DNA from: Spirochaetaceae bacterium
GTDB taxonomy: Bacteria > Spirochaetota > Spirochaetia > DSM-27196 > SKKC01
Length of the DNA: 39,730 nt
NCBI GenBank assembly: GCA_007694005.1
Contig: RECN01000068.1
Coordinates: 1-39,730 of the forward strand
Direction of reading: 5' to 3'
The position numbers and the translations under genes are program-made. The notes beneath the pieces are model-generated. The model ran no database searches, was not told the DNA's origin, and saw only the letters and a program-made list of their open reading frames with translations. Below are positions 797 to 11,931 of the stretch, in pieces (positions within the stretch are counted from its first letter, which is position 1; each line of letters opens with the position of its first letter).

Positions 797-3010
797 CTAT
801 CGTCCGACGAGGCCCAAGGCCGGAACCTGTCGCGGTTCTGCGCCGGTCTGTATCGAACCGGCTGCGTGATCATCGATCACGATTGCGGTTGCGTGTCCCC
901 AGTAGGTGCCGATTCCGGTGTTGTGTCCCCGGTTCGCGAGCGCGTTCTGTGTTCCCTGGGGAAACCCTGACTCGAACAGAAGCCGGTTCTGCACGTTATA
1001 GGGAAAGAACGTGGTCGGAAAACTCCGCACGTCAAAACGTGGCATGTCTACGGCCTGCTGTGCAGTCATTCCAAAATCGAGAATAGCCATGACCTGCTGC
1101 AGCTGACCCTGCGGCTGGAAGTCTGCCCCGGTCACGCCGCCGAGAACGTAGGGTCGGCCATCCCTCATGACCATATAGGGCATGGAGGTGTGTCTGACGC
1201 GTTTGCCGGGTGCGATGGCGTTGGGGCTGTCGGGGTCATTGCTCATGAAGGTCATGCGCTCATTCATGTGTATGCCGGTATCGCCGGCGACCATGAAGAT
1301 GATTCCTATGCTTGTGGTGACTGACGCGGCGTTACCGTAGCGGTCAATCGCGTGCAGCGTCGTCGTGTGTCCGGGGGTCGGGCCCGAGAGCAGGTCGTTC
1401 ATAGGCCAGGTTCGTACCCGGTTCGGCGAGATAAGCGCCGCCTGCCGGGACAGGTAGTCATCAGAAATCAGATAATCCACGTCGATGTCGACGAATCTTG
1501 GATCACCGATAAAGCGTTCGCGGTCGGCAAACGCGAGTTTCAGGGCCTCTGCCTGTCGGTGAACGGTCTCGGCCGAATGCACCTGAAGCCCGGTGAAGTC
1601 GAAGTTGCGCATCATCCCGAGGGCCTGCAGCATTGCAATGCCCTGACTGTTCGGCGGGTTCTGTATGACCTGGTATCCGCGGTAATCAATCGAAATGGGT
1701 TCTTTCGCCTCGACCCGCTCCATGTTTGCAAAATCGCTGTAGGTCAGAAGACCCTGGTTGGCGCGTGAATATGCTGCGATGCGTTCCGCGATCGGCCCCC
1801 GGTAGAAATGATCCTCGGCGGCGTTCAGCGCTTCGATCTCTCCGCGACCGCGAGCGTTCTCGTAGGCCCGGGTTACCTCGGCGAAGGTGTTCGCCATATT
1901 TTCGTGGCGAACGGTAGCACCTGCCGAAAGAAGGTTGTTATTGCGGATGTAAATCGCAGCGGTGTCGGGCCATTGTCTGATCTGCGCTTCCCGGGAACCG
2001 AGATAGAGGCGGGAAATGCTGCTCAAGGGGTGTCCGTCGCGGGCAATGCGCTCGGCATCCGCGGTCAGCTCGGCGAGCGGTCGTGCCCCGTAGTCCCGAA
2101 GCAGTGCCATCCAGCCCGCCCACGCTCCCGGCACTATGGATCGGTGTATGCCGGGGCGGGAAAAATAAGCCCGGTCCTGAAACCGTTCTATCGTCGCGGC
2201 CATGGGTGTCGGACCGACCCCTCCGTAGGACACGGTGCGATCGCTTGCCGCATCGTAGTACAGCATCCAGGTACCGCCGCCGAATACACTCGAGAGCATG
2301 GGTTCGACGACACTCAGCACGGCCGACATGGCAAAGACCGCGTCGGCGGCCGTGCCCCCTCGCTCGAGGACACGTATGCCGGTTTCCGTCGCCATTTCAT
2401 GCTGCGACACCGCGGCGATCGCACCTGCTTCCGGCTGTGTATTTGATCCGCTGCGTATGCTTCGCGCGAGCCGCACCAGCGAGTCCGGGCTCATGAAGTG
2501 CTCGACCGCTGCAAGGATGGGCTGCTCGGCGGCGCTCAGCGATCCTTCATCGATTGCCTCGCGGCCTTCTGCTCCCAGACGGTACATACCCGGCTCACCG
2601 GCGCGCGATGCCTCGAGGACTGCGGTCGAAAGCGCCTCCATGTCAGCGAGTACGATTGAGTTAAAGGTGTGTTCTGAAGGAGTGAAACCCCTGTTTTCCC
2701 GAAACGCTTCTGCGAAGCTTTCATACGCGGCTGCCGCACTCGTTGAGTACGACGAGCTGTAGCGGCGATCCCAGACGGCAAGTTCACTGCGCAGTTCGCT
2801 GTGCCGGTTCACGTAATCGAATCGGACTTCCGTCAAGGTATCGTCGGCCACCGTTGTCAGGAGAACCGGGTGCCAGCCTTCACCATCGGGCTGCGGACCG
2901 TATATAACGTAGGTGCCGTCCTGTAAGGGTGCCGGCCCGCAGGCAGACAGAAATATCGTCAGGCCGACGAACAGAAGACTCAGACCCTGCATTAACTTTG
3001 ATGTTCGCAT
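797..3010 (-). CDS. ggt: Gamma-glutamyltranspeptidase lipoprotein with N-terminal FMN-binding-like domain
   Basis: A 737-residue predicted lipoprotein. It has a hydrophobic signal with lipobox LSAC and Cys24 as lipidation site. Residues about 31-135 look like the FMN-binding/PplA-type lipoprotein domain (DGTYVIYG, GWHPVLLTTV, EVRFDYVN, then a Lys/Arg-Ser-Glu-like RSELAVWDRRY). The usual TGAT-S/T flavin attachment motif is absent. Residues about 195-737 are a complete Ntn-hydrolase GGT: QHEMATETGIRVLERGGTA, ERFIGDPRFVDID, and GHTTTLHAIDRYGNAA with Thr549 as the likely autoprocessing nucleophile. Then comes LGGVTGADFQPQGQLQQ. The enzyme would cleave gamma-glutamyl bonds of glutathione or polyglutamate at the cell surface. 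It is divergent from argH, with no partner gene in an operon. The GGT call is firm; the N-terminal domain assignment is by eye. Confidence 0.9.
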   Translation of the reverse strand: MRTSKLMQGLSLLFVGLTIFLSACGPAPLQDGTYVIYGPQPDGEGWHPVLLTTVADDTLTEVRFDYVNRHSELRSELAVWDRRYSSSYSTSAAAAYESFAEAFRENRGFTPSEHTFNSIVLADMEALSTAVLEASRAGEPGMYRLGAEGREAIDEGSLSAAEQPILAAVEHFMSPDSLVRLARSIRSGSNTQPEAGAIAAVSQHEMATETGIRVLERGGTAADAVFAMSAVLSVVEPMLSSVFGGGTWMLYYDAASDRTVSYGGVGPTPMAATIERFQDRAYFSRPGIHRSIVPGAWAGWMALLRDYGARPLAELTADAERIARDGHPLSSISRLYLGSREAQIRQWPDTAAIYIRNNNLLSAGATVRHENMANTFAEVTRAYENARGRGEIEALNAAEDHFYRGPIAERIAAYSRANQGLLTYSDFANMERVEAKEPISIDYRGYQVIQNPPNSQGIAMLQALGMMRNFDFTGLQVHSAETVHRQAEALKLAFADRERFIGDPRFVDIDVDYLISDDYLSRQAALISPNRVRTWPMNDLLSGPTPGHTTTLHAIDRYGNAASVTTSIGIIFMVAGDTGIHMNERMTFMSNDPDSPNAIAPGKRVRHTSMPYMVMRDGRPYVLGGVTGADFQPQGQLQQVMAILDFGMTAQQAVDMPRFDVRSFPTTFFPYNVQNRLLFESGFPQGTQNALANRGHNTGIGTYWGHATAIVIDDHAAGSIQTGAEPRQVPALGLVGR

Positions 3011-3118: not shown

Positions 3119-4489
3119 ATGGCAAAATTATGGGACAAAGGATACGCGCTCGACAGTCTGATCGAGGCGTTTACCGTCGGGAATGACTATGAGCTCGATC
3201 GGTCGCTCGTCGTAGCTGACTGTCTTGGCAGTATGGCGCACGCACGCGGGCTCGCCCGCGCGGGCATCATTACATCGGAAGACGCGGATGCGCTCGTCGA
3301 CGAGCTGCTGATCATTGCGCGCAAAGGCGAAGCGGGTGAGTTTGAGATCAGGCCACAGGATGAAGACGCGCATACCGCTATCGAAGCGGAGCTGACCGAG
3401 CGGCTCGGAGATCTCGGTAAGCGAATACACACCGGGCGCTCGCGAAACGATCAGATCATAACGGCTCTGCGCATCTACGGGCGCTCGGCGATATGGCAGG
3501 TTATAGACGCCACGGCCGAAACCTGCGATGCGCTTTTTACGCTGGCGGAAACGCACGCGCAGACCGCGATGCCGGGTCGTACGCATCTTCAGATCGCTAT
3601 GCCTACGACCTTCGGGCTCTGGGCAGCGTCGATTGCTGAAGCACTGACCGATGACCTCGAACTGCTTTCCACGGCGCGGAGGCTCTGCGACCGGGGAGCG
3701 CTCGGGTCTGCGGCCAGCTATGGTGTGCCGCTACCGCTTGACCGCGCATACACCTCTGACCTGCTGGGATTTGAGCGGCTTCAGAACAACGTTCTCGCGG
3801 TGAACAATACGCGCGGACGACTCGAGCTTTCGGTGCTGACCGCGCTTGAGTCGATCATGCTCACGCTTTCGAAGATGGCGACCGATCTCATTCTGTTTTC
3901 GCTTCCGGAGCTCGGGTACGTCTCGCTTCCGGAAGCCTTGTGCTCCGGGTCGAGTATCATGCCGCAGAAGCGTAATCCGGACGGACTGGAGCTTCTGCGC
4001 TCCCGCAGCGGTGTCGTCGGCGGTTATGCGTCGACGGTGCGCAACATCGTCCGGTCTCTCCCAAGCGGTTACAACAGGGACTTCCAGGATACGAAGGAGC
4101 CGTTTCTTCGCGGCCTCGCCCTGACTGCGCTCGCGGTGCGGGTGGCGGGCAGAACCGTAGCTGCTCTTGAGGTGCATCCGGAAAAGCTGAAAGACGCACT
4201 CGTACCGGAGGTATACGCCACCGATGTAGCACTCGATCGTGTACAGGGAGGCGAAAGTTTCCGCGATGCCTACCGTTACGTAGGAACTCATCTGGATGAT
4301 CTCGGTGCGTACCGCTTTGAGACCGCGCTTGAGCGTCGCACAGGTATTGGTATGCCCGGGGCTCCCGGGTTTGACAGCGGGCGTGACGCTCTGGGCCGCT
4401 TGCTCGAGCTCGAGCGGGGAAGACAGCATCAGGCGAACGCCGCACTCTCGGCTCTTGCGGGTGATGAGGTGCGGGTAAGCGCGCTATGA
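3119..4489 (+). CDS. argH: Argininosuccinate lyase
   Basis: A 456-residue cytoplasmic enzyme that splits argininosuccinate to arginine and fumarate, the last step of arginine synthesis. It shows the family blocks in order: AHARGLARAGI near residue 40, EDAHTAIEAEL, HTGRSRNDQI near residue 104, MPGRTHLQ, and the fumarase/aspartase superfamily signature GSSIMPQKRNPD near residues 278-289 holding the catalytic serine. Full length for the family. Its stop overlaps the start of the next gene in an ATGA, so the kinase is translationally coupled. No other arg genes are in view. Confidence 0.96.
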   Translation: MAKLWDKGYALDSLIEAFTVGNDYELDRSLVVADCLGSMAHARGLARAGIITSEDADALVDELLIIARKGEAGEFEIRPQDEDAHTAIEAELTERLGDLGKRIHTGRSRNDQIITALRIYGRSAIWQVIDATAETCDALFTLAETHAQTAMPGRTHLQIAMPTTFGLWAASIAEALTDDLELLSTARRLCDRGALGSAASYGVPLPLDRAYTSDLLGFERLQNNVLAVNNTRGRLELSVLTALESIMLTLSKMATDLILFSLPELGYVSLPEALCSGSSIMPQKRNPDGLELLRSRSGVVGGYASTVRNIVRSLPSGYNRDFQDTKEPFLRGLALTALAVRVAGRTVAALEVHPEKLKDALVPEVYATDVALDRVQGGESFRDAYRYVGTHLDDLGAYRFETALERRTGIGMPGAPGFDSGRDALGRLLELERGRQHQANAALSALAGDEVRVSAL

Positions 4490-10080: not shown

Positions 10081-11859
10081 TTACTCCCCGGTTATTATGC
10101 CTTCGTATATCAGCAGTTCTTCTCCGTCAAGACTGACGTAGAAGTTCTCTTCGAAGGTCGTATACGCGTCCGGGACTTCTCCGATGAATGCGATGTCCGG
10201 ATTGGCGCTCTGTATATCCTCTGGACTCAAGGGTGTTTCGTTTTCCACGATGACACCGGCGAGCCCTTCAAGAAGGGGGAGGTGCTCTTTCGTGAAACCG
10301 CGGGTGAGCATGATTTCTCCACCGTCGAGTCGAAGCCTCCTGCGCGCCGAATGTGCATCCTCGCATTTAACAATGCGGCCGGAGCCGAGTTTTCCGCACC
10401 CGAACTGGCCTCTATTCAGGATGTTGCCGAGAAAATGAACCTTGACCGTGTTCATCATGATCGGGCTGTTAACCGGTATGCCGGCTGCAGTCACAACCCG
10501 GTCGAGTCGACCGACGTAGCCTGATGCAAGACTGACGCGTATGGCGTTCTGTATCATCGCATCGCTGTCGTTTGCGAACTCGGTCTTGATTGGTGTTACA
10601 CCCCAGTGGATCAGAAGCTGTCGCTGCACGCGATCGCTGACGGTAACCGCGATGATGTCCTGCTGCGGTCGGAACTGACTCAGGACGCGGGGACTGTTAC
10701 CTCGAAGGCTCGGCGCGATAATCGCTGATGCGCCTACCTCATCTGCAACCACGTACGCGGCCCGTGCGATCGCATGTCCCATATCACTGGTATCATTTCT
10801 ACGGGCATAAAAATGCGCCTGGCATTCTTTACGGTATTCTTCGGATTCTTCGACCGCGCGCGCAATCTTGTCGAGCATGGCCACGCTTTCTACCGGATAA
10901 CGGCCGCCGGCGGTTTCTCCCGAGAGCATGACGCAGTCGGCCCCGTCAAAAATCGCGTTGGCGACGTCCGTCGTTTCTGCCCGCGTCGGTTTCGGGTTGT
11001 GGATCATAGAGTCAAGCATCTGTGTCGCAACGATAACCGGCTTGTTCATTGTGTTGCAGAGGTGGATGATCCGTTTCTGCGCCATGGGAATGAGCTCGGT
11101 GGAAAGTTGTACGCCGAGGTCACCTCGGGCAATCATTATGCCGTCCGATACACGGATGATGTCCTCGATGTTCTCCAGGCCTTCTTCATCTTCGATTTTT
11201 GCGATGACCCGGATCTCCGACTTGTGATCGTGCAGAAGGTTCTTGATCTCCTGCACGTTTTCCGCCTTTCGAATAAAACTGGCTGCAATAAAGTCTACTT
11301 TTTCGTGTAAGCCGAACAGAATATCGTCGATATCCTTCTTCGTCATTGCAGGCAGTCTCGTGCGAACGCCGGGAACGTTGACATTCTTTCGCGATCCGAT
11401 AAGTCCGCCGTTTCGAACCATGCAGACTATTTCGGTACCCCTGACTTCCTCGACTTCAAGGTCGATGAGACCGTCGGCAACGAAGATGTGCATGCCCGGT
11501 ACAACATCGTCGGGAAGTTCGGCATAGGAGATGGATAGACGTTCTTCGGTTCCCGCGACCGTTTCGGTTGTCAGAACAATCCGGTTTCCGTGATGAAGTT
11601 CGAGGGTTCCGTCATCCTTGACTGCACCAGTCCTGATTTCGGGTCCCTTTGTGTCGAGCATGAATGCGACGGGAATTTCCAGCTCTGCAGACGCTTTACG
11701 CGCCCTCTGTATACGTGTGAGATGCTCATCGTGTGAGCCGTGCGAAAAGTTCAACCGGCAGATGTTTAGCCCGGACGTGATCAGGCCGCGTATTTTTGCA
11801 TCGTCATCAACGGCTGGACCAAGGGTGCCGATAATCTTCGTTTTTCGGATTTTCTTCAT
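10081..11859 (-). CDS. pyk: Pyruvate kinase with C-terminal swivel-like domain
   Basis: A 592-residue glycolytic enzyme making pyruvate and ATP from phosphoenolpyruvate and ADP. ATG 11859 is chosen over a start at 11913 because the protein then begins MKKIRKTKIIGTLGPA, the normal N-terminus. Landmarks are LNFSHGSHDEH, MLDTKGPEIRTG, the catalytic-lysine region VIAKIEDEEGLEN, metal-binding IMIARGDLGVQ, and KPVIVATQMLDSM. About 110 extra residues at the C-terminus correspond to the phosphohistidine-swivel-like domain of Geobacillus-type enzymes (SGRIVK, GEIMLTRGFTKEHLPLLE). The TSHA histidine motif of that domain is missing. It lies 72 bases after the unknown gene upstream and may share its transcript. 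Confidence 0.94.
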   Translation of the reverse strand: MKKIRKTKIIGTLGPAVDDDAKIRGLITSGLNICRLNFSHGSHDEHLTRIQRARKASAELEIPVAFMLDTKGPEIRTGAVKDDGTLELHHGNRIVLTTETVAGTEERLSISYAELPDDVVPGMHIFVADGLIDLEVEEVRGTEIVCMVRNGGLIGSRKNVNVPGVRTRLPAMTKKDIDDILFGLHEKVDFIAASFIRKAENVQEIKNLLHDHKSEIRVIAKIEDEEGLENIEDIIRVSDGIMIARGDLGVQLSTELIPMAQKRIIHLCNTMNKPVIVATQMLDSMIHNPKPTRAETTDVANAIFDGADCVMLSGETAGGRYPVESVAMLDKIARAVEESEEYRKECQAHFYARRNDTSDMGHAIARAAYVVADEVGASAIIAPSLRGNSPRVLSQFRPQQDIIAVTVSDRVQRQLLIHWGVTPIKTEFANDSDAMIQNAIRVSLASGYVGRLDRVVTAAGIPVNSPIMMNTVKVHFLGNILNRGQFGCGKLGSGRIVKCEDAHSARRRLRLDGGEIMLTRGFTKEHLPLLEGLAGVIVENETPLSPEDIQSANPDIAFIGEVPDAYTTFEENFYVSLDGEELLIYEGIITGE

Positions 11860-11931
11860 TGCGATCTGGTACTCCCGGCGGCAATTGTACTGATGTCGCG
11901 CGTTTGTGTCCAAATGCAGGGACGTGTTGAC

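What the first reader, a model, noticed from the sequence alone, without database searches (positions are those of the whole stretch)
797..3010. GGT fused to an FMN-binding-like lipoprotein domain
The first 135 residues after the lipid anchor look like the PplA/FMN-binding lipoprotein domain, then a full gamma-glutamyltranspeptidase follows. The TGAT-type flavin-attachment motif is missing, so the domain may have been re-used as a spacer or ligand-binding module on a surface GGT. I do not know of this fusion being described.
Basis: partly seen in the sequence, partly recalled or inferred. Interest (0 to 1): 0.6.

Follow-up and report, generated by a model that had tools for sequence, protein, structure and literature searches.

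The report
GGT-like lipoprotein with retired flavin domain
In halophilic spirochaetes a lipid-anchored enzyme of the gamma-glutamyltranspeptidase family carries, between its membrane anchor and its catalytic part, a domain borrowed from flavin-carrying electron-transfer lipoproteins that has lost the site where the flavin is attached, so it probably serves as a stalk or docking piece rather than for redox chemistry.

Summary
The ORF at 797-3010 (-) is 737 aa: lipobox Cys24, a PplA/FMN-binding-type domain (about 31-152), two helices, then a GGT-family domain (about 197-737). The domain match is now established: profile-profile probability 99.2, E 2e-19, against canonical motif-bearing domains; E 2e-12 to the crystal structure 3o6u; and 3o6u is the best fold match of the predicted model (Z 8.0). 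The flavinylation motif D-x-x-[S/T]-G-A-[S/T] is absent in all 16 fused proteins read. The same domain order occurs in 16 of 46 genomes of the order, in five families and in a complete genome, so it is not an assembly artefact. Unfused relatives are mostly lipoproteins too, so the domain probably sits between an existing anchor and enzyme. It evolves faster than the enzyme but under purifying selection. The enzyme half keeps the catalytic Thr549 but has lost most residues that hold the gamma-glutamyl group in E. coli GGT, and it misses the NCBIfam GGT equivalog cut-off, so "full GGT" is true of the family, not of the substrate. Best reading: a non-redox, membrane-proximal stalk or docking module. 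A new variant of a known kind; no description was found in the searched papers.

The parts
797..3010 (-). Whole fused gene: lipoprotein signal, PplA-type domain, GGT-family enzyme (737 aa, stop included)
2939..3010 (-). Signal peptide and lipobox, residues 1-24 (LSAC, lipidated Cys24)
   Evidence: Sequence; helix 4-22 in the model. Lipidation is inferred from the lipobox.
2555..2920 (-). PplA/FMN-binding-type domain, residues about 31-152, without flavin-attachment motif
2657..2677 (-). Residues 112-118 (SEHTFNS), where canonical relatives have D-x-x-[S/T]-G-A-[S/T]
   Evidence: Alignments
2423..2524 (-). Helical and then poorly ordered linker, residues about 163-196
   Evidence: Helices 163-186, pLDDT below 50 at 182-194
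800..2422 (-). GGT-family N-terminal-nucleophile hydrolase domain, residues 197-737
   Evidence: PF01019 E 3e-112; PDB 2nlz E 2e-61, 2e0w E 1e-51
1364..1366 (-). Codon of Thr549, predicted self-cleavage site and catalytic nucleophile (E. coli GGT Thr391)
   Evidence: Alignment

Best explanation
A lipid-anchored, exported hydrolase of the GGT family that is expected to cut itself at Thr549 and act outside the cytoplasm. Between anchor and enzyme lies a domain homologous to the FMN-binding repeat of PplA-type electron-transfer lipoproteins. It has lost the ApbE recognition motif and therefore most likely carries no covalent flavin. It most likely works as a folded membrane-proximal stalk or docking module that sets the distance or partner of the enzyme. 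Shown here: homology, fold, domain order, motif loss, purifying selection, retained nucleophile. Inferred: lipidation, absence of flavin in the protein, stalk or docking role, hydrolysis rather than transpeptidation.
For: Homology and fold. Motif absent in all 16 fused N-domains; no D-x-x-[S/T/A/G]-G-[A/S/V/C]-[S/T] or [S/T]-G-A-[S/T] string in any N-domain. ApbE needs an Asp-led seven-residue motif (PMC12052999), and FMN-binding domains without covalent flavin bind flavin weakly (PMC8238504). The genome's only ApbE lies on another contig, whereas several canonical relatives in the order lie next to an ApbE-like gene by sequence (L128, L182, L184, L185). Unfused relatives mostly have a lipobox directly before the enzyme, and L018 sits inside a fused clade without the domain, so the enzyme can exist without it. 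N-domain dN/dS 0.04-0.35 against 0.02-0.11 for the enzyme in close pairs: kept, but looser, as expected of a structural part.
Against: No experiment. The conserved D31-G32, G45-W46 and FDYxN could also serve ligand binding. A pure spacer need not keep a fold, so the purifying selection suggests more than length. Standalone lipoproteins made only of the motif-less domain exist in genus g2 (L192, L193), so the domain may have a job apart from the enzyme. Non-covalent flavin binding is not excluded.
Confidence: 0.6

Rival explanations
1. The domain binds a small ligand (non-covalent flavin, quinone or a peptide) and regulates or feeds the enzyme.
For: The fold is kept and so are residues shared with the canonical domains (D-G, G-W, D-Y-x-N); dN/dS well below 1; motif-less standalone lipoproteins exist.
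Against: Outside the structural core the N-domain is poorly conserved (17-37% identity beyond the genus), without an invariant polar cluster at the former flavin loop. FMN-binding domains without covalent flavin bind flavin weakly (PMC8238504).
Confidence: 0.2
2. The domain is a slowly decaying remnant of a gene fusion, tolerated but not used.
For: Faster evolution than the enzyme; loss in L018; heavy divergence and length change in L020, L023 and L024.
Against: Open frame and colinear fold core kept in five families; dN/dS 0.04-0.35 in close pairs.
Confidence: 0.12
3. The domain is still flavinylated at a non-canonical Ser/Thr and the protein is a redox-linked hydrolase.
For: ApbE is encoded in the genome, and window Ser118 falls at the position of the flavinylated Thr.
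Against: The Asp, Gly and Ala of the motif are all gone and the Ser/Thr position is not conserved (Pro in L004 and L005). No ApbE lies near the fused genes of this genome.
Confidence: 0.04
4. The similarity is chance and the N-domain is an unrelated fold.
For: The single-sequence hit is weak (18.8 bits) and the domain model is of moderate confidence (pLDDT 65).
Against: Profile E 2e-12 and 2e-19 with colinear alignment, and the best fold match is the same family.
Confidence: 0.01

Closest known systems
PplA, flavinylated extracellular-electron-transfer lipoprotein of Listeria (NCBIfam NF041941)
   Same: Lipoprotein with the domain soon after the lipid anchor; colinear homologous domain.
   Different: PplA carries covalent FMN at two sites (PMC9973259) and no enzyme; here the motif is lost and a GGT-family enzyme follows.
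CPE2226 domain of Clostridium perfringens (PDB 3o6u)
   Same: Best sequence and fold match (E 2.1e-12; Z 8.0).
   Different: Has DVITGATSSS at the attachment loop; no enzyme in the solved construct.
Fumarate reductase-like enzymes with an FMN-binding domain (PMC8238504)
   Same: An FMN-binding domain joined to an exported enzyme.
   Different: There the domain is flavinylated and feeds electrons to a flavin reductase; here the partner is a hydrolase that needs no electrons, and the motif is gone.
E. coli gamma-glutamyltranspeptidase (2dbu/2e0w)
   Same: Same family and nucleophile Thr.
   Different: No extra domain and no lipid anchor in E. coli; Arg114, Asn411, Gln430 and Asp433 replaced by V265 (or its neighbour G266), G569, R585, F588 here.
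Extremophile GGTs (GtGGT, PtGGT; PMC8062742) and the cephalosporin-acylase-annotated 2nlz
   Same: His-Thr in place of Ser462-Ser463 and no conserved Arg; 2nlz is the closest PDB entry by sequence (E 2e-61).
   Different: No PplA-type domain; the aligned Arg114 position is Ser in those enzymes and Val here.

Membership tests
PplA/FMN-binding domain fold | Homologous sequence over the whole domain | tested here: met
   hhalign probability 99.2, E 2.1e-19, 119 columns; 12 of 13 members hit NF041941
PplA/FMN-binding domain fold | Same fold as solved members | tested here: met
   3o6u best match, Foldseek E 1e-4, VIA Z 8.0 over 113 residues; model pLDDT 65
Flavinylated FMN-binding protein (PplA proper) | ApbE motif D-x-x-[S/T]-G-A-[S/T] | tested here: not met
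   Absent in all 16 fused N-domains; window has SEHTFNS there
Flavinylated FMN-binding protein (PplA proper) | NCBIfam NF041941 curated cut-off (325 bits) | tested here: not met
   18.8 bits for the whole protein
Flavinylated FMN-binding protein (PplA proper) | Covalently bound FMN | not testable with these tools
   Needs mass spectrometry or fluorescence
GGT family (Pfam PF01019) | Family score above the gathering cut-off | tested here: met
   376 bits against 27, residues 213-728
GGT family (Pfam PF01019) | Catalytic Thr at the start of the small subunit | tested here: met
   Thr549 aligns with E. coli Thr391 and is invariant in the clade
True gamma-glutamyltransferase (TIGR00066 equivalog) | Equivalog score of 357.85 bits or more | tested here: not met
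   317.4 bits; relatives 294-341
True gamma-glutamyltransferase (TIGR00066 equivalog) | Gamma-glutamyl pocket residues (E. coli Arg114, Asn411, Gln430, Asp433, Ser462-Ser463) | tested here: not met
   Aligned with V265, G569, R585, F588, H607-T608; alignment-based, not structural
Bacterial lipoprotein | Signal peptide with lipobox | tested here: met
   LSAC ending at Cys24, by reading the sequence; no signal-peptide predictor was run

The most novel reading that the evidence does not exclude
FMN-binding domains that have given up flavin form a class of docking or sensing modules in halophilic spirochaetes, placed both on GGT-family hydrolases and as standalone lipoproteins, perhaps pairing with the flavinylated sister proteins of the same cell and so tying an exported hydrolase to the redox chain.
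Probability: 0.12. Interest if true: 0.65.

Novelty: new variant of a known kind. Interest (0 to 1): 0.42.

Why it matters
FMN-binding domains are usually read as a sign of electron transfer. Here is a family, present in many genomes, in which the fold was kept while the flavin site is missing, joined to a non-redox enzyme. It warns against annotating every such domain as a flavoprotein, and gives a clear case for testing what the fold does without its cofactor. It also marks a GGT-family clade shared by halophilic spirochaetes, haloarchaea, Kocuria and soda-lake Firmicutes whose substrate pocket does not look like that of GGT.

Tried and rejected
Pfam Phytoreo_Pns (PF05451) hit on the N-domain (E 7e-4 for the whole protein; 7e-5, above its cut-off, for the domain alone; 3 of 13 members): taken as chance, as it covers 71 residues of a plant-virus protein in a fragment of the domain. 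Pfam FMN_bind (PF04205) does not see these N-domains: its six hits in this genome are other genes. Gene neighbours gave no functional lead: argH beside the gene in this genome and in L046, a histone-deacetylase-family gene near the standalone copy, other genes elsewhere. Single origin of the fusion: not settled; the tree needs at least three label changes and a single clade is not rejected (p-AU 0.095). No PHROG matched. Paper searches for FMN-binding together with GGT found no description of the fusion; only open-licence PMC full texts are held, so this is weak evidence of novelty. The two GGTs without the domain in this genome (L001, L002) were kept as comparison.

Full report
WHAT IS THERE. 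The ORF at 797-3010 (-) encodes 737 aa with a lipobox LSAC ending at Cys24. Pfam places a GGT domain at 213-728 (E 3e-112); the closest solved relatives are 2nlz (E 2e-61) and E. coli GGT 2e0w (E 1e-51), both starting near residue 196-199. Residues 25-190 have no credible Pfam domain (the one hit is discussed under rejected leads), but NCBIfam PplA matches weakly.

IS THE N-DOMAIN REALLY PplA-LIKE? Yes. The genome has five GGT-family genes; three have the extra domain, two do not. Searching the whole genome with the PplA model returns three places, exactly those three N-domains. Of 13 N-domains collected from relatives, 12 match the PplA model, best E 7.9e-12; that of L009 covers one whole PplA repeat (E 1.5e-10 for the full protein). 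A profile of the 13 finds the structural-genomics domain 3o6u at E 2.1e-12, colinear over 121 positions, and 2kzx at 7.5e-5, and aligns with nine canonical motif-bearing domains at probability 99.2, E 2.1e-19. The AlphaFold2 model of the domain, of moderate confidence (mean pLDDT 65), has 3o6u as best Foldseek hit (E 1e-4) and best VIA hit (Z 8.0, rmsd 3.3, 113 residues), with the true FMN domain 8p2b and 2kzx next at Z 3.7-3.8. The fold evidence alone would be modest; the sequence profiles make the case.

BOUNDARY. In the full-length model strands and helices of the N-domain span 33-152, two helices 163-186, pLDDT falls below 50 at 182-194, and the GGT core starts at 199.

THE FLAVIN SITE IS GONE. 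ApbE attaches FMN to the last residue of D-x-x-[S/T]-G-A-[S/T] (PMC12052999). Canonical relatives in the phylum have DTISGAT, DTVTGAT, DAVTGAT, DALTGAT, DAVSGAT and the like. The aligned stretch here is SEHTFNS (residues 112-118), and none of 16 fused N-domains has the motif or any [S/T]GA[S/T]. Loss in single domains is seen elsewhere in the family: the second domains of the standalone proteins L126, L127 and L132 also lack it. Domains without covalent flavin bind flavin weakly (PMC8238504), so I infer that the fused domain is flavin-free.

DISTRIBUTION. Searches of relatives show the fusion in 16 of 46 genomes of the order: G000-G004 and G006 (f1), G009 and G016 (f4; the G016 copy is a fragment), G028, G032, G036, G040 and G043 (f7), and more divergent forms in G010 (f5, a one-contig genome), G021 and G038 (f3). 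Sample names suggest soda-lake and other sediments (my reading of the isolate names). Close relatives of the enzyme without the domain are in Kocuria, Natronorubrum, Natronococcus and a Syntrophomonadaceae assembly of the same sample series. Most of these, and many of the unfused spirochaete copies, show a lipobox-like Cys right before the enzyme, so the domain appears to have been placed between anchor and enzyme; L019, L021, L022 and the second copy of L054 show no clear lipobox.

HISTORY. In the enzyme tree the fused copies fall into three clades with at least three label changes; one clade for all is not rejected (p-AU 0.095), and L018 is best read as a secondary loss. Whether the motif was lost before or after fusion is open. 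In genus g2, standalone lipoproteins made of just the motif-less domain occur (L192, L193) beside canonical two-domain proteins with DVVTGAT and DQVTGAT (L194, L195).

CONSTRAINT. In five close pairs dN/dS is 0.04-0.35 for the domain and 0.02-0.11 for the enzyme (NG86): kept by selection, but in most pairs two to three times looser. Synonymous sites are saturated in the window/L008 pair, so that value is rough.

THE ENZYME. Thr549 aligns with E. coli Thr391 and is invariant in the clade. Residues that hold the gamma-glutamyl group in E. coli are replaced: Arg114 by Val265 (neighbour Gly266), Asn411 by Gly569, Gln430 by Arg585, Asp433 by Phe588, Ser462-Ser463 by His607-Thr608. Extremophile GGTs also have His-Thr there and Ser for the Arg (PMC8062742). 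The protein scores 317 bits against the 358 needed for the GGT equivalog. I infer a hydrolase of unknown, perhaps not gamma-glutamyl, substrate.

MECHANISM. Most likely the lipid anchor holds the enzyme outside the cytoplasm, the PplA-type domain forms a folded stalk or docking piece, and the GGT-family domain hydrolyses an amide after self-cleavage. No step of this was shown by experiment. Against a redox role: no motif, a hydrolytic partner, and the only ApbE gene on another contig, while several canonical relatives sit next to ApbE-like genes recognised by sequence.

NOVELTY. FMN-binding domains joined to exported reductases are described (PMC8238504). A motif-less one joined to a GGT-family hydrolase was not found in the papers searched; the library holds open-licence papers only. 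I class it as a new variant of a known kind. Interest is moderate: a clean case of a cofactor domain reused without its cofactor, with function still untested.

Noticed in passing
L048, L052-L054, L161-L164: GGT-family genes often come in adjacent pairs; in several spirochaetes a fused copy lies beside an unfused copy that belongs to a separate 'partner' clade in the tree.
   Followed up: partly
L049 (Kocuria), L050 and L051 (haloarchaea), L054 (Syntrophomonadaceae): The closest unfused enzymes outside spirochaetes include those of haloarchaea and other phyla, suggesting gene transfer among salt-lake microbes.
   Followed up: partly
L192:168-1103 (+), L193:1196-2056 (-): Standalone lipoproteins consisting only of the motif-less domain; in both loci a 367-aa frame lies on the opposite strand (in L193 a histone-deacetylase family gene).
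   Followed up: partly
L126, L127, L132: Two-domain PplA-like proteins whose first domain keeps the flavin motif and whose second domain has lost it.
   Followed up: no
L138-L144: Spirochaete lipoproteins with three tandem PplA-type repeats, many with DDIAGVS/DDIAGAS in place of DxxSGAT; whether these are flavinylated is unclear.
   Followed up: no
window 3119-4489 (+) and L046:4398-5768 (-): An argH-like gene (argininosuccinate lyase by sequence) is divergently placed next to the fused GGT both here and in L046.
   Followed up: no
window 10081-11913 (-): Pyruvate kinase with an extra C-terminal PEP-utiliser-like domain (weak, below the family cut-off).
   Followed up: no
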